Source: Hyphomicrobiales bacterium (lineage in GTDB: Bacteria; Pseudomonadota; Alphaproteobacteria; Rhizobiales; Rhizobiaceae). Taken from it: a stretch of DNA of 64,000 nt. Where the stretch lies: assembly GCA_900465685.1 (NCBI GenBank), contig UEGR01000007.1, forward strand, positions 496,001 to 560,000. Reading direction: 5' to 3'. Positions within the stretch are counted from its first letter, which is position 1. The number at the start of each line of letters is the position of its first letter. The position numbers and the translations under genes were made by a program. The notes beneath the pieces are model-generated. The model was not told where the DNA came from and ran no database searches. It was given only the letters and a program-made list of their open reading frames with translations. This document shows positions 33,825 to 45,085 of the stretch, piece after piece.

Positions 33825-34544
33825 TCAAACCAGTGCGGAAAGTGCGGCCTCCGCTTGCGCTATGGCCTCTGGCGTTCCGACCGTCAGCCAATGCCCCACC
33901 ATGGGCATACCATAAAGACGGCCTTCAGCGATGGCCTTATCGAAATATCGATTGAGCGACGCCACTTCAGGCGTTGCACCTGCAAAAATGCGCGGGTGAA
34001 TGATACCAGCCCCGGCATAGATCAGCGGCGTTCCGGGCACATCGCGAGCACGGCGCAAACGGCCTGCATCATCGGCGACGAAATCGCCCTTCCCTTCGAA
34101 ACCAGTGGCCTGATCAAGCCCCGCCGTCATCAGCAGGATATCCATGCAGGTATCGTCCCAGGCTTCGCCTAAAGCCGTAAGATTGGGCTTCGCTGTATCA
34201 CCCACCCAGAATGTATCGGCGTTCAGAAGATAGAACGGAGACGTTCCCAGCTGTGGCAATGCCTTTACGATACCGCCTGCGGAATCGAGCAGCAGATCAC
34301 GCTCGTCGGAAATGACGATATGCGGCTCCGCGCGGTCAGCGAGATAGGTATCCAGTTGGTCGGCTAAATAATGGACATTTACCACCGCGTTGGGCACGCC
34401 AACAGCTTCCAGCGCGTCCAGACCCCAGTCGATCAGTGGCTTTCCCGCGACTTTGACCAGCGGCTTTGGAATTGTCTCGGTGATGGGGCGCATACGCTTG
34501 CCAAGCCCCGCCGCCAGAACCATGGCCGTCTCAGGCATTTTCAT
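33825..34544 (-). CDS. murU: Nucleotidyltransferase, probable MurNAc-1-phosphate uridylyltransferase (MurU-like)
   Basis: A 239-residue sugar-nucleotidyltransferase: MVLAAGLGKRMRPITETIPKP is the NTP-binding start and LLNADTFW the metal-binding Asp region. MurU of Pseudomonas makes UDP-MurNAc from MurNAc-1-phosphate in cell-wall recycling. The assignment rests on overall likeness and on the adjoining AmgK-like kinase domain, its known partner. It overlaps the upstream tsaE-amgK gene by 14 nt; AGGAAGGG lies 10 nt before the ATG. Confidence 0.8.
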   Translation of the reverse strand: MKMPETAMVLAAGLGKRMRPITETIPKPLVKVAGKPLIDWGLDALEAVGVPNAVVNVHYLADQLDTYLADRAEPHIVISDERDLLLDSAGGIVKALPQLGTSPFYLLNADTFWVGDTAKPNLTALGEAWDDTCMDILLMTAGLDQATGFEGKGDFVADDAGRLRRARDVPGTPLIYAGAGIIHPRIFAGATPEVASLNRYFDKAIAEGRLYGMPMVGHWLTVGTPEAIAQAEAALSALV

Positions 34545-36066
34545 TGCGCACGAACCCTTCCTGCATCAACCCCAATTCGCGGAACCATGCCGCCACGGGC
34601 GCCATGACCGGATGAACAAGCACACGCCCGAGATAATCATGGATGCGCGGCAGATGGTTGAGATAAGCCGGTTTGCCGTCGCGCTCATCAAGCCGCACAA
34701 AGAGGCCGAGCAGCTTGGCATTGCGTTGCGCGCCCATGGCCGCATAGGCCTTGCGGAACAGAGCTTCGTCGAAAGCATGGCCGAGGCGACGGCGCTCCTC
34801 ACAATAAGCCGCCACGACCGCCTGCTCCAGTTCGACGGAGATCGTCACGCGCGCGTCGAGCGCCAGCGAGGCCACATCATATGCAGCGGGACCGATCATC
34901 GCGTCCTGAAAATCGATGGTTCCGATCCTGTCCTTGCCTTCGGCTTCCGGAAACCAGAACAGGTTCGGCGAATGATAATCGCGCAGCAAAAGGCTCTGTT
35001 CGACATCAGCGATATCGACAATCACCCTGTCCCACGCGGCTTCGTAAGCCTGCTTTTCAGCGTCGGTCAGTTGCCGCCCCATCATGCGCGGCGCATACCA
35101 CTGCCCGACAAGGCTCACCTCAATCATCATGGCATCACGGTCGAAAGGCGCAATCAGGTGATCGGCGTAGCCATCGAGCGGCACGCGGTTCGGCCAGTCC
35201 ACACCATGCACATGCGCGAGAAAGCGCCCTGCCGCCTCGTAGCGTTCCGCCACCGGCTCACCGGATTCAGCACGCATGCCCTCTACGCCCAGATTTTCCA
35301 GAACCAGAAAACCTGCATCCAGATCAGCGGCGCGCATGTCCGGCACACGAAAACCATGCGCGGCCAGAAGCCCGTCAATGGCCGCGAAAGCCAGGATATT
35401 TTCGGCCAGATGCGCAATCTGCCGATAGGTCTTGCCGTCACGCAACGGCGGATCATAGGGCATCTGCGGCGCATTCATGAGAATTTCGACGCCATGCGCA
35501 GTGCGGATCGTTTCATATTTGCGCGGAGATGCATCGCCTTGCAGATAACGCCGCTCGGCACCCTGCCGGTCGTAACGGTCAAGGAAAGCGCGAATGGCCA
35601 GCGAACGCTCCAGACGGCTGATCGCCGCCTGCGGCCCGGTAATGGCGATGCGCCGCCCTGCCCCTTCATGCGAAAGCGTGACCGAGAAATTCGCTTCGGG
35701 CAAAAAGCCCTCGCCGCGTTCCGGCCATTCGGAAAGCACAACACCATCATCCAGAAATTCGACCAGTCCCAGCTCGTCGAGTTCTTCTCCCGACGACAGG
35801 CGATAAAGATCGGCATGAGCGACCGGTAAACGAAGCGCATCGTAGCTCTGCACCAACGTGAAGGTCGGGCTTGGCACTTCCAGCCCCGGATCGTCAGCAA
35901 TGGCGCGGATTATTGCGCGTGCCAGCGACGACTTCCCCGCCCCCAGATCGCCGGAAAGCGTGACCAGATCGCCCTTTTGCAGAGCAAGAGCGAAGTCCTC
36001 GCCAAACCGGAGTGTGGCGGCTTCATCGGGCAGGTAGGATTCGAGAATCTGTGTTTGGGCGCTCAT
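34531..36066 (-). CDS. tsaE: TsaE-AmgK fusion: tRNA t6A ATPase subunit plus sugar kinase
   Basis: 511 residues with two domains. Residues 1-150: TsaE (YjeE) ATPase with LSGDLGAGKSSLARAII, PSPTFTLVQSY and HADLYRL, needed for t6A37 tRNA modification. Residues 170-511: aminoglycoside-phosphotransferase fold with LLRDYHSPNLFW and IGTIDFQDAMIGPAAYD, resembling AmgK, the MurNAc/GlcNAc anomeric kinase. The fusion is known in Rhizobiales. No strong ribosome-binding site is seen before MSAQTQILES; an ORF extending upstream is not homologous. The second domain and the overlapping MurU-like gene form a muropeptide salvage pair. Confidence 0.88.
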   Translation of the reverse strand: MSAQTQILESYLPDEAATLRFGEDFALALQKGDLVTLSGDLGAGKSSLARAIIRAIADDPGLEVPSPTFTLVQSYDALRLPVAHADLYRLSSGEELDELGLVEFLDDGVVLSEWPERGEGFLPEANFSVTLSHEGAGRRIAITGPQAAISRLERSLAIRAFLDRYDRQGAERRYLQGDASPRKYETIRTAHGVEILMNAPQMPYDPPLRDGKTYRQIAHLAENILAFAAIDGLLAAHGFRVPDMRAADLDAGFLVLENLGVEGMRAESGEPVAERYEAAGRFLAHVHGVDWPNRVPLDGYADHLIAPFDRDAMMIEVSLVGQWYAPRMMGRQLTDAEKQAYEAAWDRVIVDIADVEQSLLLRDYHSPNLFWFPEAEGKDRIGTIDFQDAMIGPAAYDVASLALDARVTISVELEQAVVAAYCEERRRLGHAFDEALFRKAYAAMGAQRNAKLLGLFVRLDERDGKPAYLNHLPRIHDYLGRVLVHPVMAPVAAWFRELGLMQEGFVRNENA

Positions 36067-36345
36067 AGGCTCAGGACCGGCTAATTTGGTGCAAATGGTG
36101 TGAGGCCATCCGTTCGGATACGCGGAGAAAAGGCGAAGGAAATGTGGTTCATTTTCTAGCCTTTTCGACGATGTAGCCGGGCGAATGGACCACATCCTTC
36201 GGACACCGAAATGACTGGCGATCTGCTGCGTCGAGCTGCTTGACCGGGGGAACCGCCCCGTTCTTCACATCTCTCCTGGCAACTCTTGTCATTTCAGGTG
36301 CCATTTCCATCAAATTAGTCAGTCCTGAGCCTAGCACCGTTTACC

Positions 36346-40872: not shown

Positions 40873-41685
40873 TTAGCCGATTGCCGGTTCCACCACGGTC
40901 AAATCGAGATTGATCCCAAGAATTTCCAACATTCTTCGGAACTCCGACGCCGGATAGGCGGTGTTCTCGGTCACCAGCGCTACGGTCTGCCCGGAGCCGC
41001 CTTGTGAGGAGGGAAGGGCCGAAACGACGCTATCCGCCGGGTCGAGAAACAGCCAATCGGGACGCGCTTTCTCAAAGAACGGTCGCAGCCAGGGCAGATG
41101 CGTACTCGACAAAGTCAGAACATCGATGTGTGGATGCTTCGCCACAATCGCATCGCAGAAGCGGGCAACGTCTTCGGCGGTGCTTGCCGGGTCTGACAGA
41201 AACAGACCGCTTTCCACAAGCTCGACCATGGGAGAAGCATTGATGAGACTAACCTCAGCCGATCCAGTCGCTTGGGTATGCACAAACGCGCTGAGTTCGG
41301 CGCTTTCAATCATTGAACGAACGCCCATGACCGCAACATGGCCACTGCGGCTGGTCGCGATTGCCTCCCGAACAGGAGGAGCAACCCCATAGACTGGAAC
41401 AGCGAATTGATCCTTCAATTCATCCAGCACCATGATCGACGGGGCATTGGACGCCAGAACGACGCTCTCCGCACCGAGACCGATCAAATAGTCGATTGTG
41501 CTGCGCATAATGGACAACAGCTCGCTTCGCGTTTTCCCGCCATAGGGAAAACGCGCCCGATCTGCAAAATAGATGATGTCCCGCTGGGGCTGTCGGCGTC
41601 TGATCAGCTCGACCAGCGCGTAGCTTCCAATGCCTGCGTCAAACACCGCGACAGGCGCGGCAAGGCTGTCCAATGGGATCAGCAT
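40873..41685 (-). CDS. MurI-like (Asp/Glu racemase fold) protein lacking both catalytic cysteines
   Basis: 270 residues aligning along the whole of glutamate racemase: AVFDAGIGSYALVELIRRR, YFADRARFPYGGKTRSEL, PVYGVAPPVREA and LTLSSTHLPWLRPF. The two cysteines that abstract and return the proton are both serine: Ser79 in VVLASNAPS (normally ACNTAS) and Ser194 in LSSTHLP (normally LGCTHYP). Asp16 and the His after Thr are kept. Racemase activity is therefore doubtful; a binding or regulatory role is possible. Its start overlaps the ptsH stop by 7 nt, placing it in the bvrR-bvrS-hprK-EIIA-HPr transcript. Confidence 0.8.
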   Translation of the reverse strand: MLIPLDSLAAPVAVFDAGIGSYALVELIRRRQPQRDIIYFADRARFPYGGKTRSELLSIMRSTIDYLIGLGAESVVLASNAPSIMVLDELKDQFAVPVYGVAPPVREAIATSRSGHVAVMGVRSMIESAELSAFVHTQATGSAEVSLINASPMVELVESGLFLSDPASTAEDVARFCDAIVAKHPHIDVLTLSSTHLPWLRPFFEKARPDWLFLDPADSVVSALPSSQGGSGQTVALVTENTAYPASEFRRMLEILGINLDLTVVEPAIG

Positions 41686-41993
41686 TCCTCGCCGAACTTG
41701 TCGGCAATCAGTACCTGCAAGGCATTGAGCACGGTTTCGGCCTGTTCACCGGAGGCGCTGACCTCGATGCAGCAACCGGGCGAGGCGGCCAGCATCATCA
41801 ATCCCATGATGGAGGTGCCCCCAACGGTCATGCCGTCCTTGGAAACGCGGACATGCGCATCATAGCCATCGACGAGCTGGACGAACTTGGCGGAGGCGCG
41901 GGCATGCAGCCCGCGCTTGTTCACGATCTCAAGCGACCGGGAAATGGCAGTTTCGGGATCATATTCGCCAGTAAGGGTGACGCTGGACGGCAT
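41679..41993 (-). CDS. ptsH: Phosphocarrier protein HPr-like
   Basis: 104 residues with a 20-residue N-terminal extension. Phosphorylatable His30 in NKRGLHARASAKFV and the regulatory serine Ser61 in GGTSIMGLMMLAASPG, the target of HprK, are present. It belongs to the incomplete, regulatory PTS of alphaproteobacteria, receiving phosphate from EI-Ntr. It lies 3 nt after the EIIA gene and overlaps the MurI-like gene by 7 nt. Confidence 0.93.
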   Translation of the reverse strand: MPSSVTLTGEYDPETAISRSLEIVNKRGLHARASAKFVQLVDGYDAHVRVSKDGMTVGGTSIMGLMMLAASPGCCIEVSASGEQAETVLNALQVLIADKFGEEC

Positions 41994-41996
41994 ATA

Positions 41997-42398
41997 TTAC
42001 TTTCCTGTCAGAACCTGACTTGCGACGTTGATATATTTGCGCCCCGCATCCTGCGCCTCGCGAAGCGCAGTCTTGATATCACCCCCGACCCGCACGCTCG
42101 AAAGCTTGATCAGCATCGGCAGATTGACGCCTGCGATGACTTCAATCTTGCCTTCCTGCATGACCGAAATGGCCAGATTGGATGGAGTTCCACCGAACAT
42201 GTCGGTCAGGATGATGACGCCGCTGCCATTTTCGGCGCGTTCAACAGCTTCGACGATATCCCGCCGACGCTGCTCCATGTCATCTTCCGCACCGATGCAT
42301 ACGGTTTCGAAATTATCCTGCGGGCCTACCACATGCTCAACGGCATGAAGAAACTCTTCGGCCAGCCTTCCGTGCGTAACAAGCACGAGTCCGATCAT
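41997..42398 (-). CDS. ptsM: PTS EIIA component, mannose family
   Basis: 133 residues opening MIGLVLVTHGRLAEEFLHA with phospho-acceptor His9; then GVIILTDMFGGTPSNLA, the EIIA-Man signature. No EIIB/EIIC is nearby, so it is likely regulatory and not part of a sugar transporter. The start at 42398 has GGGAG 10 nt upstream; the longer frame adds 12 codons lacking support. The symbol ptsM follows use in Brucella. Confidence 0.9.
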   Translation of the reverse strand: MIGLVLVTHGRLAEEFLHAVEHVVGPQDNFETVCIGAEDDMEQRRRDIVEAVERAENGSGVIILTDMFGGTPSNLAISVMQEGKIEVIAGVNLPMLIKLSSVRVGGDIKTALREAQDAGRKYINVASQVLTGK

Positions 42399-42653
42399 AC
42401 TATAAAAGCTCCCGTCGCGCGCCCGCCGCATCACCCCGCCAGATGATCAGATGGCACCTGCTTTGTTCCAGTACGATCACTCCAAAAAACCTGTTCCGTT
42501 TTAAGGATCGTACTGCAGCCGGAACCATGCCGGCGAGTTGTGCATCTTGGCAGGGCAAATCCTTATAGCAAGTGAAAAATCTCTACCCCGCCTTGAAAAA
42601 AGCAAAATGCCGCAGCGGTGTGAAATCTTCATCGAATCGAAACCATCATCGGC
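42399..42653. other. 255-bp gap between hprK and the EIIA gene
   Basis: No reading frame of note and no strong terminator are visible. It may carry an internal promoter for EIIA-ptsH-MurI-like, because the spacing is much larger than elsewhere in this cluster. Confidence 0.4.
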
Positions 42654-43136
42654 TCAGCGATTCTCCGGCGACCATGGTTCGTAGAATAAAGTCGCCTCGA
42701 TCGCCCGCGACAGCGCGTTGGAATCGCCATTTGACGACAGGGACGGCAAAAGCAACCGCGGCAGATCGATGGCTTCAAAACTCCAGCTTCCACCGCCGGG
42801 ATAGCGCTCCGCTTCTTCGCGGGCCACAAGCCAGATCACCAGATCAAGCGTCGCACTGGCGACAAAAGGCACCCTGAACAGGCCCGCACCGCGAATCTCC
42901 ACACCACCCGCAAGGGCAGCCGGAGCGCTGGCGATGAGATGATTATCTTCCGACCGCAGCATCGTGCGATCATCGCTGACCAGAAAAGCCTGTTCACCGC
43001 GAAGGGAAGCCCGCTCGATAAGTGTCAGTGCGAGTTCAGTCTTGCCCGCGCCCGAGCGGCCCATGATCATCACGCCCTTTCCGCGCAATTGCACGGTGGT
43101 GGCATGCAGACCGCTCTTGGCTTCTTCCGGGGTCAT
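42654..43136 (-). CDS. hprK: Short HPr kinase/phosphorylase (catalytic domain only)
   Basis: 160 residues, about half the length of Firmicute HprK (about 310); it corresponds to the C-terminal catalytic domain. The P-loop is MGRSGAGKTE (26-34), and the family signature region is GGVEIRGAGLFRV. It phosphorylates the serine of HPr. Its start overlaps the bvrS stop by 4 nt (ATGA), so kinase and sensor are co-translated. Confidence 0.93.
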   Translation of the reverse strand: MTPEEAKSGLHATTVQLRGKGVMIMGRSGAGKTELALTLIERASLRGEQAFLVSDDRTMLRSEDNHLIASAPAALAGGVEIRGAGLFRVPFVASATLDLVIWLVAREEAERYPGGGSWSFEAIDLPRLLLPSLSSNGDSNALSRAIEATLFYEPWSPENR

Positions 43137-44962
43137 GTGCTGACCGGAAGATCGACGATGAAGCGAGCGCCCCTGAATTCATCCGGCTTGGCCGGATCGA
43201 CAATGTTCTCGGCCGTCAGCGTGCCACCATGCGCTTCGATGATCTGGCGGCTGATCGACAGACCAAGGCCGGAATTCTGTCCGAAAGCCTCCGAGGCCGG
43301 ACGATCCGTATAGAAACGCTCGAAAATTCGCTCGATATTCTCGATGGGGATGCCCGGTCCGTTATCTTCGACCAGAACACGCAGACGGCTGCCTTCTCCC
43401 TGCAACGTCACCACGATACGACCCGTATCGTCCGGTACGAAGGAGCGTGCATTTTCAATGAGGTTGCTCACCACCTGACCGAGCCGCAGATCATGGCCCG
43501 CGACATAGAATGCCTTTTTGCCTGCGGGCAGCTTGCCGGTATTGAAGACGATTTCTGTGCCGATCTTGTTGCGGCGCACTTCGCGCGCGGCAGTCACAAG
43601 ATTGGTGAGTAGCGTCTTCATATCCACACGATCGATATGTTCACGCGCCAGTTCGGCATCGAGACGGGAAGCATCCGAAATATCGGTGATCAGTCGATCC
43701 AGACGGCGCACATCATGCTGGATGATGTCGAGCAGACGCTTGCGCGATTCCTCGGACTTGGCGAGCGGCAGGGTCTCGACCGCGCTGCGGAGCGAGGTGA
43801 GGGGGTTCTTCAGCTCGTGACTGACATCAGCGGCAAAGCTCTCAATGGCTTCGATGCGTGTATAGAGCGAATCCGTCATCTCGCGGATGGAGGTGGAGAG
43901 ATGGCCCACTTCGTCCTGACGTTCCGAGAAATCGGGAATTTCGACACGGTTCTTGACGCCATGACGGACACGATCCGCTGCAGCCGACAATTTGCGTAGC
44001 GGGCTTGCGATGGTCGATGCGAGAAAGAGCGACAGGATCACCATGACCAGCGCGACGACGCCGAACACGCGGAAGACCGCCATGCGCTCGCCCTGCACGA
44101 TCTTGTCGATATCGTCGCCTTCGGTCGACAGCAGCAGCACACCGAGAATGGCACGCGAACGCTGGACAGGAACCGCGACCGAAACCACGAGTTCGCCTTT
44201 CTCGTTTCGCCGCTGCGCCGTTTGCGGGGAACCCGTCAGCGCCTTGACGATCTCTGGGAAGGCAAGACCGTTACCGCCCGGCTGTTCCTGATAGACCGGC
44301 AAGCCACCGCCAAAGAAGAAGCTGGTGAACCATCGGCTGAAACGCTCCCAAACACTGGGCTTTTCTTCCTCGATGGGCGGCAGATCATAGCGCAGCACCG
44401 GCCCGGACGACGGGAAACTCGGCGAATAGAGCGCGCGCGAATCCAGCAGCATATTGGCGTAGCGATCATAGATACGCGCACGCGTGCTGGTCGGCGAAAT
44501 CAACCGGCGCAACAGCGGGGAAACCTTTTCAGGATTGATCGGGAATTCCCAATTATCGGGAGAATCGGGCGAGGGGGTCAGGCTTTGCCCGGCCTGCAGC
44601 TCCAGAAGCTTTTCCGGATCGACCATCAGCGAGTTGGTATCGACCGTTGCCGAGGCAGAAATCGCCGCAGCGATGATCTTGCCCTGAGTGAGAAGGCTTT
44701 CCACCTTCGCGTCGATCAGCCCCTCGCGGAACTGGTTCATATAGAGAATGCCGGAGACGAGAACGCCGAGCGCCGCAAGGTTGAGGAACAGGATGCGGCG
44801 CGTCAGGCTCGAAAAGAGATATTGACCGAGAAACTTGCGAAAGGGCGCAAACAGGCGACGCCAGAACACCGAGCGCTGTCGCCGCGCTCTGCGCTCACGC
44901 AAGTTCGCTTGCAAACTCGTTTTCTGGCCTGCAAGGCCTTCGTTCTGGGTCTCTGCGACCAT
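43133..44962 (-). CDS. bvrS: Sensor histidine kinase BvrS (ChvG/ExoS orthologue)
   Basis: 609 residues from MVAETQNEGLAG. One membrane helix near residue 60 (FLNLAALGVLVSGILYMNQF), a periplasmic domain of about 230 residues, a second helix (VFGVVALVMVILSLFLAS), HAMP, the phospho-His box DVSHELKNPLTSL, and an ATPase domain with VSNLIENARSF, EDNGPGIP and NSGLGLSISRQII. It senses acidic/host-like conditions in relatives and controls outer-membrane and metabolic genes. The start has only a weak AAGCGAG; longer starts run into a repeat element. Confidence 0.94.
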   Translation of the reverse strand: MVAETQNEGLAGQKTSLQANLRERRARRQRSVFWRRLFAPFRKFLGQYLFSSLTRRILFLNLAALGVLVSGILYMNQFREGLIDAKVESLLTQGKIIAAAISASATVDTNSLMVDPEKLLELQAGQSLTPSPDSPDNWEFPINPEKVSPLLRRLISPTSTRARIYDRYANMLLDSRALYSPSFPSSGPVLRYDLPPIEEEKPSVWERFSRWFTSFFFGGGLPVYQEQPGGNGLAFPEIVKALTGSPQTAQRRNEKGELVVSVAVPVQRSRAILGVLLLSTEGDDIDKIVQGERMAVFRVFGVVALVMVILSLFLASTIASPLRKLSAAADRVRHGVKNRVEIPDFSERQDEVGHLSTSIREMTDSLYTRIEAIESFAADVSHELKNPLTSLRSAVETLPLAKSEESRKRLLDIIQHDVRRLDRLITDISDASRLDAELAREHIDRVDMKTLLTNLVTAAREVRRNKIGTEIVFNTGKLPAGKKAFYVAGHDLRLGQVVSNLIENARSFVPDDTGRIVVTLQGEGSRLRVLVEDNGPGIPIENIERIFERFYTDRPASEAFGQNSGLGLSISRQIIEAHGGTLTAENIVDPAKPDEFRGARFIVDLPVST

Positions 44963-44984
44963 CTCGCTTAGGTTACTCGTGCTA

Positions 44985-45031
44985 GAGCACATCCCGAAAA
45001 GTGTGAACGGCTTTCGGATAGGATATGCGTC
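44985..45031. repeat. Palindromic repeat between bvrR and bvrS
   Basis: GAGCACATCCCGAAAAGTG and, after a short loop, CGGCTTTCGGATAGGATATG are imperfect complements. It is the same family as 26604 and 32802, here with a mismatched stem. It would lie in the bvrR-bvrS message just before the bvrS start. Confidence 0.65.
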
Positions 45032-45085
45032 AAATATTCCTGACCAATGCCGGGATATCGCACCCGGCATTGATAATCATATGCA

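What the first reader, a model, noticed from the sequence alone, without database searches (positions are those of the whole stretch)
40873..41685. Glutamate-racemase homologue with both catalytic cysteines replaced by serine, inside the bvr/PTS operon
The protein keeps the MurI framework end to end, yet Ser79 stands where ACNTAS has Cys and Ser194 where LGCTHYP has Cys. Glutamate and aspartate racemases of this fold need the two thiols for two-base proton transfer. Loss of both with an intact frame and operon position (7-nt overlap with ptsH, just before ahcY) suggests a retained non-racemase role, such as sensing an amino acid and reporting to the regulatory PTS.
Basis: partly seen in the sequence, partly recalled or inferred. 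Interest (0 to 1): 0.7.

Follow-up and report, generated by a model that had tools for sequence, protein, structure and literature searches.

The report
Conserved cysteine-free glutamate-racemase-like protein
The gene makes a relative of a cell-wall enzyme (glutamate racemase) in which both reactive cysteines have become serines, and the same double change is kept in distant bacteria, so it is a separate conserved protein family, probably with a different chemistry, rather than a decaying gene.

Summary
The 270-aa protein at 40873-41685 (-) is MurI-like with Ser79 and Ser194 in place of the two catalytic Cys; its start overlaps ptsH by 7 nt. A normal Cys/Cys murI lies on another contig of the genome. 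It is not decay: 14 of 14 full-length genus copies keep Ser/Ser under purifying selection, and so do 80 of 80 kept relatives from Alpha-, Beta- and Gammaproteobacteria and Staphylococcaceae (42-94% identity), plus one in a Fusobacterium record. Two relatives have Ala/Ser. The family is one branch apart from MurI; it keeps MurI's Asp16, Asp42, Asn80, Glu158, Thr195 and His196 but swaps both thiols and six other MurI-invariant residues. It is a patchy accessory gene; 18 of 20 carrier genomes searched also hold a MurI. The PTS link is local: ptsH and ahcY flank it in 18 of 80 loci, all Rhizobiales, and 15 of 30 genus loci examined lack it with ptsH present. So a retained non-racemase role is supported, PTS signalling is not. 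Best guess: an enzyme acting on an amino-acid-like acid by elimination- or hydrolysis-type chemistry around Ser194-His196-Glu158. That chemistry is inferred; no structure could be computed (server busy).

The parts
40873..41685 (-). Ser/Ser glutamate-racemase-like protein, 270 aa
41449..41451 (-). codon of Ser79 (TCC), in place of the first catalytic Cys of MurI
41104..41106 (-). codon of Ser194 (AGT), in place of the second catalytic Cys of MurI
41638..41640 (-). codon of Asp16, kept in 33 of 33 family rows and 23 of 23 MurI rows
41560..41562 (-). codon of Asp42, kept in 33 of 33 family rows and 23 of 23 MurI rows
41212..41214 (-). codon of Glu158, kept in 33 of 33 family rows and 23 of 23 MurI rows
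41098..41100 (-). codon of His196, kept in 33 of 33 family rows and 23 of 23 MurI rows
41679..41993 (-). ptsH (HPr/NPr), overlaps the racemase-like gene by 7 nt
41997..42434 (-). ptsM, EIIA of the mannose family
42654..43136 (-). hprK, short HPr kinase
43133..45070 (-). bvrS histidine kinase (named by its place, from the operon of PMC9491525)
39289..40701 (-). ahcY, downstream neighbour

Best explanation
The protein belongs to a distinct, conserved family on the Asp/Glu-racemase fold whose two catalytic cysteines are both gone. It is an accessory, stand-alone gene that has probably spread by gene transfer; in the Brucella/Phyllobacterium line it sits between ptsH and ahcY, placed to be transcribed with them. 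It is probably not the cell's glutamate racemase. Most likely it is an enzyme that still grips an amino-acid-like or dicarboxylic acid in the MurI cleft (Asn80, Thr195, Pro47 and Gly49 kept in 33 of 33 rows, Tyr48 in 31). It no longer racemises by thiol-thiol proton exchange; instead Ser194, backed by His196 and Glu158 and opposite Asp16, carries out another reaction such as elimination (dehydratase/lyase type) or hydrolysis, clearing or using an uncommon metabolite. Shown here: family, conservation, residue swaps, co-occurrence with a normal MurI, patchiness. Inferred: gene transfer, catalysis, the Ser-His-Glu relay, the reaction type and the substrate.
For: Ser/Ser in 14 of 14 genus copies and 80 of 80 kept relatives. 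The family rows are one side of a branch against 23 MurI rows, SH-aLRT 100 (quick method). Asp16, Asp42, Glu158, His196, Asn80 and Thr195 are identical in 33 of 33 family and 23 of 23 MurI rows, while both Cys and Ser17, Gly21, Thr81, Ala82, Thr122, Thr125 are swapped; that several of these touch the substrate in MurI is recalled. Ser194 is kept in 33 of 33 but Ser79 in 31 of 33 (Ala in 2), which points to Ser194. Of 20 carrier genomes or records searched, 18 also hold a MurI over cut-off; the 2 without are Thalassospira, a group where 0 of 29 genomes have a MurI over cut-off and only 6 of 29 have even a below-cut-off match (two of the six read in full, both Ser/Ser). Purifying selection in the genus. 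Some neighbours handle amino acids: RhtB/LysE-type exporter upstream in 9 of 18 Halomonadaceae loci, PdxR-type MocR regulator divergent in 2 loci. Precedent: a Cys-to-Thr change turns 3-hydroxyproline epimerase into a dehydratase, and MurI itself eliminates from N-hydroxyglutamate (PMC8142540, passages).
Against: No structure or assay; the relay geometry is untested (structure prediction was busy at all 21 tries). Neighbours differ between lineages and each association may be a single inherited event, so context does not name a substrate. Only 11 of 26 MurI-invariant positions are kept in every family row, and those kept could serve ligand binding alone. Absence from 15 of 30 genus loci fits a marginal role.
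Confidence: 0.4

Rival explanations
1. A non-catalytic binding protein (pseudo-racemase) that senses glutamate or another amino acid and regulates a partner, in this line possibly HPr/NPr.
For: Both thiols gone in 80 of 80 kept loci; 7-nt overlap with ptsH here and the same slot kept in 18 loci; Asn80 and Thr195 kept.
Against: Outside one group of Rhizobiales no ptsH lies beside it; 15 of 30 genus ptsH loci examined lack it; Asp16, Asp42, Glu158 and His196 stay invariant, which a mere binder need not keep.
Confidence: 0.22
2. A slow or unusual racemase/epimerase in which two serines do the proton transfer.
For: Cys-to-Ser MurI mutants are reported to keep about one thousandth of activity (PMC6927343 passage); RacX works with Ala79/Cys193 and EcL-DER with Thr83/Cys197 (PMC12838360 passages).
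Against: RacX and EcL-DER keep one Cys; EcL-DER C197S was inactive and RacX C193S markedly reduced. A normal MurI is present in 18 of 20 carriers. Ser79 is Ala in two relatives.
Confidence: 0.18
3. A moonlighting regulator derived from MurI, for instance acting on DNA gyrase as some MurIs do (recalled, not from a call).
For: Loss of the catalytic Cys with the rest of the framework kept.
Against: Does not explain the invariant active-site residues, and no call gave support for it.
Confidence: 0.07
4. A decaying duplicate of murI.
For: Pseudogene in Brucella abortus (PMC9491525 Table 1); split frames in two low-completeness assemblies, G001 and G006; frequent absence.
Against: Ka/Ks 0.07-0.18, motifs kept across phyla, a deep separate branch.
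Confidence: 0.03

Closest known systems
Glutamate racemase MurI (TIGR00067, PRK00865)
   Same: Similar length; Asp16, Asp42, Pro47, Gly49, Asn80, Glu158, Thr195, His196.
   Different: No catalytic Cys at either place; Ser17, Gly21, Thr81, Ala82, Thr122 and Thr125 swapped; below the family cut-off; deep separate branch; found in genomes that mostly hold a true MurI too.
EcL-DER, RacX of Halocola and MMP0739: Asp/Glu-racemase relatives with one Cys replaced
   Same: A catalytic Cys replaced (Thr83 or Ala79 for the first; Thr at the opposite base in MMP0739) (PMC8142540, PMC12838360 passages).
   Different: They keep one Cys; here neither remains.
Arylmalonate decarboxylase (AMDase)
   Same: Same superfamily, chemistry other than racemisation (PMC4996985 passages).
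   Different: AMDase works through a deprotonated Cys (that this Cys is at the second site is recalled); here that site is Ser194.
trans-3-hydroxy-L-proline dehydratase (another fold, recalled)
   Same: A base swap from Cys to a hydroxyl residue changes an epimerase into an eliminating enzyme (PMC8142540).
   Different: One Cys is swapped, not two; only an analogy.
Brucella abortus BAB1_2098 / BAW_12012
   Same: Same slot between ptsO/ptsH and ahcY in the bvr operon (PMC9491525 Table 1).
   Different: Recorded there as a pseudogene and given no function; its sequence was not fetched here.

Membership tests
MurI glutamate racemase | score over TIGR00067 cut-off (146.65 bits) | tested here: not met
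   107.7 bits
MurI glutamate racemase | first catalytic Cys | tested here: not met
   Ser79; Ser in 31 and Ala in 2 of 33 family rows, Cys in 23 of 23 MurI rows
MurI glutamate racemase | second catalytic Cys | tested here: not met
   Ser194 in 33 of 33 family rows, Cys in 23 of 23 MurI rows
MurI glutamate racemase | auxiliary Asp, Asp, Glu, His (roles recalled from Glavas & Tanner 2001, not read) | tested here: met
   Asp16, Asp42, Glu158, His196 in 33 of 33 and 23 of 23 rows
MurI glutamate racemase | supplies D-Glu for the cell wall | tested here: inconclusive
   genomic evidence only: a canonical murI is in the own genome and in 18 of 20 carriers; no assay
MurI glutamate racemase | racemises glutamate | not testable with these tools
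   needs an assay
Asp/Glu racemase superfamily (PF01177) | Pfam gathering score | tested here: met
   32.7 against 31 bits
Asp/Glu racemase superfamily (PF01177) | two-domain fold with cleft | not tested
   structure server busy at all 21 tries (first, last); by sequence the profile matches 23 solved MurI sequences, mostly over its first 160-215 of 267 positions
EcL-DER/RacX type racemases | second catalytic Cys kept | tested here: not met
   Ser194
Arylmalonate decarboxylase | catalytic Cys at the second site (place recalled) | tested here: not met
   Ser194
Component of the regulatory PTS | constant linkage with PTS genes | tested here: not met
   ptsH beside it in 18 of 80 loci, one group of Rhizobiales
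Known defence or phage protein family | match to PADLOC or PHROGs | tested here: not met
   three family proteins scanned: none match PADLOC; in PHROGs none for the window protein, one weak hit (E 0.0021) for a Staphylococcus homologue

The most novel reading that the evidence does not exclude
An active site without catalytic cysteine has evolved on the glutamate-racemase fold and spread between phyla by gene transfer, turning a proton-shuttling racemase into an enzyme with a Ser-His-Glu relay and a new reaction on an amino-acid-like substrate.
Probability: 0.35. Interest if true: 0.75.

Novelty: new variant of a known kind. Interest (0 to 1): 0.58.

Why it matters
Racemases of this fold are textbook two-thiol enzymes and drug targets. 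The one-Cys variants I found in print keep a thiol; a conserved clade with neither is a natural double mutant that can test whether the fold can do other chemistry. It also warns that genes named glutamate racemase or Asp/Glu racemase beside PTS genes in this genus, and their relatives in Halomonas, Bartonella or Staphylococcus, should not be counted as the cell-wall enzyme.

Tried and rejected
Decay of murI: rejected by conservation and Ka/Ks. Replacement of MurI in Thalassospira: considered because 2 carriers had no canonical MurI; rejected because 0 of 29 genomes of that group have a MurI over cut-off and only 6 of 29 have even a below-cut-off match. All 29 match the D-amino-acid-transaminase model, but none over its cut-off and 11 of 14 control genomes also ring, so that route is only a guess. 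Two independent arrivals in the ptsH-ahcY slot: the careful tree splits the 19 slot rows (window included) into two sets, but one clade is not rejected (p-AU 0.377). Glutamate dehydrogenase as upstream neighbour in Paraburkholderia: my guess from size, wrong; a 501-residue piece of it matches histidine kinases. Phage carriage: 21 stretches matched a pattern in viral contigs, none encodes a relative. Plasmid carriage: 3 records matched; one relative on a Phyllobacterium replicon, one on a 2.1-Mb Fusobacterium record, one 27.7% match not followed. 5-oxoproline genes (a PxpC-like ORF in the Fusobacterium locus, name recalled; pyroglutamyl peptidase in Mammaliicoccus): one locus each, dropped. A naive chance figure for the four kept auxiliary residues is not used, since those columns are invariant in MurI as well. 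Papers: no report of a member lacking both Cys was seen in the listings; several lists were capped (15 of 23, 15 of 411, 10 of 209 papers shown) and only the open library was searched.

Limits: the genome search counts are lower bounds (its search with PF01177 missed the window's own gene). The scan used the peptide patterns VFDAGIGS and MVELVE[NS]G and kept 80 of 117 confirmed loci, so these are chosen for those motifs but not for the Ser places. Gene calls in high-GC loci came from my own simple scoring and some neighbours may be wrong frames. My notebook entry miscounts the genus loci as 17 with and 13 without; recounting one search gives 15 and 15.

Full report
What is there. The reverse-strand ORF 40873..41685 encodes 270 aa. 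It matches TIGR00067 glutamate racemase at 107.7 bits, below the 146.65-bit cut-off, and Pfam Asp_Glu_race at 32.7 bits, just over the gathering score. A profile of its close copies matches 23 solved sequences, all named glutamate racemase, mostly over its first 160-215 of 267 positions; the C-terminal 60 residues align only loosely. Ser79 and Ser194 take the places of the two catalytic cysteines. The gene overlaps ptsH by 7 nt and precedes ahcY, in the order bvrR-bvrS-hprK-ptsM-ptsH-gene-ahcY (bvr names by place). In Brucella abortus this is part of one 16-gene operon, where the gene in this slot is listed as a pseudogene (PMC9491525, section 12 read).

The true murI is elsewhere. The same genome has a MurI with ACNTAS and ACTHYP on another contig. 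Of 21 loci whose genomes or records were offered, 20 could be searched; 18 hold a MurI over cut-off as well as the Ser/Ser protein. The other two are Thalassospira. In that group 0 of 29 genomes have a MurI over cut-off and 6 of 29 have a below-cut-off match (102-110 bits). Two of these six I read at both places and both are Ser/Ser (G649, and G795, which by its coordinates is G814); a third (G818) carries SSTHLPW; three were not read. All 29 match the D-amino-acid-transaminase model below its cut-off, as do most control genomes, so how this group makes D-glutamate is open. Either way the Ser/Ser protein does not track the need for D-glutamate.

Conservation in the genus. 16 of 35 genomes have the gene: the own one, 13 full-length and 2 in split frames in assemblies of 85% and 69% completeness. 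All 14 full-length copies are Ser/Ser; the other 13 are 69-94% identical to the window copy. Ka/Ks is 0.07-0.18 over the 14 pairs computed (in some pairs Ks is over 1). Of 30 ptsH loci examined out of 36 places listed, 15 have the gene (ptsH to ahcY 944-1010 nt; one of them the split copy of G001) and 15 lack it (147-240 nt in 14, 605 nt in one), with no remnant found by tblastn at E up to 1.

Conservation beyond. A scan of the genome collection (one genome for each of 84,980 species) kept the best 80 of 117 confirmed loci. They come from Brucella/Ochrobactrum and kin, Phyllobacterium, Mesorhizobium and kin, Bartonella (apis/apihabitans type and uncultured), Bradyrhizobium, Methylobacterium, Thalassospira, Halomonadaceae, Burkholderiales and Staphylococcaceae, plus one contig titled Bacillus subtilis that looks mislabelled. 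80 of 80 have Ser at both places, with ASN[A/V]PS and [L/M]SSTHL. A Fusobacterium record holds another with ASNAPS and SSTHLPW. Two genomes of an unnamed genus of the same order have Ala in place of Ser79 and keep Ser194.

A separate family. In a tree of 33 family rows and 23 MurI rows each set is one side of a single branch (SH-aLRT 100), across about 3.6 changes per column (2.97 plus 0.6, quick method, with warnings for long branches and letter make-up). Median identity is 48% within the family, 23% to MurI and at most 29% to MurI. Of 26 positions invariant in the MurI rows, 11 are identical in all 33 family rows, among them Asp16, Asp42, Asn80, Glu158, Thr195 and His196. The two Cys, Ser17, Gly21, Thr81, Ala82, Thr122 and Thr125 are swapped; the rest vary in a few rows.

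How rare it is. Besides the own or centre genome: 3 of 397 genomes in the order (16 more matched at 92-102 bits, the range of ordinary MurI, and were not read), 2 of 398 in the phylum (4 more at 126-130 bits were read and are Cys/Cys), 0 of 378 in Bacillota, 1 of 367 in the class (the same Thalassospira as). These are lower bounds.

Context. ptsH upstream and ahcY downstream occur in 18 of 80 loci: 16 from named Brucellaceae or Phyllobacteriaceae and 2 titled only Rhizobiales bacterium. Elsewhere: an RhtB/LysE-type exporter upstream on the same strand, within 4-185 nt of the match, in 9 of 18 Halomonadaceae loci (family counted from record titles); a Maf-like ORF in 9 Bartonella loci, with a ClpB-like one downstream; a YebC-like ORF in 6 loci (these three names recalled); a HAD hydrolase in 3 Mesorhizobium/Aquamicrobium loci, after phosphoglucose isomerase in the one tested; a multi-pass protein in 5 staphylococcal loci, the one tested without Pfam or NCBIfam match; a divergent PdxR-type MocR regulator in 2 Burkholderiales loci; an lpd-like ORF downstream in 2 and an HpaI-type aldolase, convergent, in 2. 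None of the 14 neighbour proteins searched across 87 sequences lies beside the gene in more than one broad lineage. The two Ala/Ser copies lie between prs-like and rplY/pth-like ORFs, and one Ser/Ser copy of that genus lies by transposase-like ORFs (names recalled). No relatives were found in viral contigs, and no PADLOC match.

Mechanism. What is in print: replacing Cys by Ser in a MurI costs about 10^3 in rate and by Ala all of it (PMC6927343, passage). Relatives with one Cys replaced stay active or become one-directional or are predicted to (EcL-DER Thr/Cys, MMP0739, RacX Ala/Cys). A Cys-to-Thr change turns 3-hydroxyproline epimerase into a dehydratase, and MurI eliminates from N-hydroxyglutamate (PMC8142540 and PMC12838360, passages). 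Here neither catalytic thiol is left while all four titratable auxiliary residues remain (their roles are recalled from Glavas & Tanner 2001, not read). I therefore favour an enzyme with other chemistry centred on Ser194, His196 and Glu158 over a pure binding protein, at 0.4 against 0.22. The substrate is unknown; the exporter and regulator neighbours hint at an amino-acid-like compound, weakly, since each may be one inherited event.

Verdict. The PTS idea fits only the local lineage and is not supported. The finding is a new variant of a known kind: a conserved, patchily spread branch of the glutamate-racemase fold without the catalytic cysteines.

Noticed in passing
Thalassospira genomes (L098, L102, L168): 0 of 29 genomes of this group hold a glutamate racemase over the TIGR00067 cut-off; all 29 match the D-amino-acid-transaminase model below its cut-off (11 of 14 controls ring too), so how they make D-glutamate is open.
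   Followed up: partly
L049: A contig filed as Bacillus subtilis SK6B4 shares gene order and near-identical proteins with Pseudochrobactrum: probably a mislabelled or contaminated record.
   Followed up: no
L135, NZ_CP084075.1: A 2.1-Mb circular Fusobacterium record sits in the plasmid collection with one annotated feature in all; it looks like a chromosome.
   Followed up: no
L116 and L117, G378 and G274: A diverged branch of the family has Ala instead of Ser79 and lies between prs-like and rplY-like ORFs in an unnamed genus of the same order; 3 of 18 genomes of that genus have any member.
   Followed up: partly
window 34531-36195 (-): Long ORF that looks like TsaE joined to a kinase-like (phosphotransferase) domain (recognised by eye only).
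   Followed up: no
L083 4977-6287: In one Methylobacterium locus the reading frame runs on to 436 aa with an arginine-rich tail, perhaps a lost stop or a sequence error.
   Followed up: no
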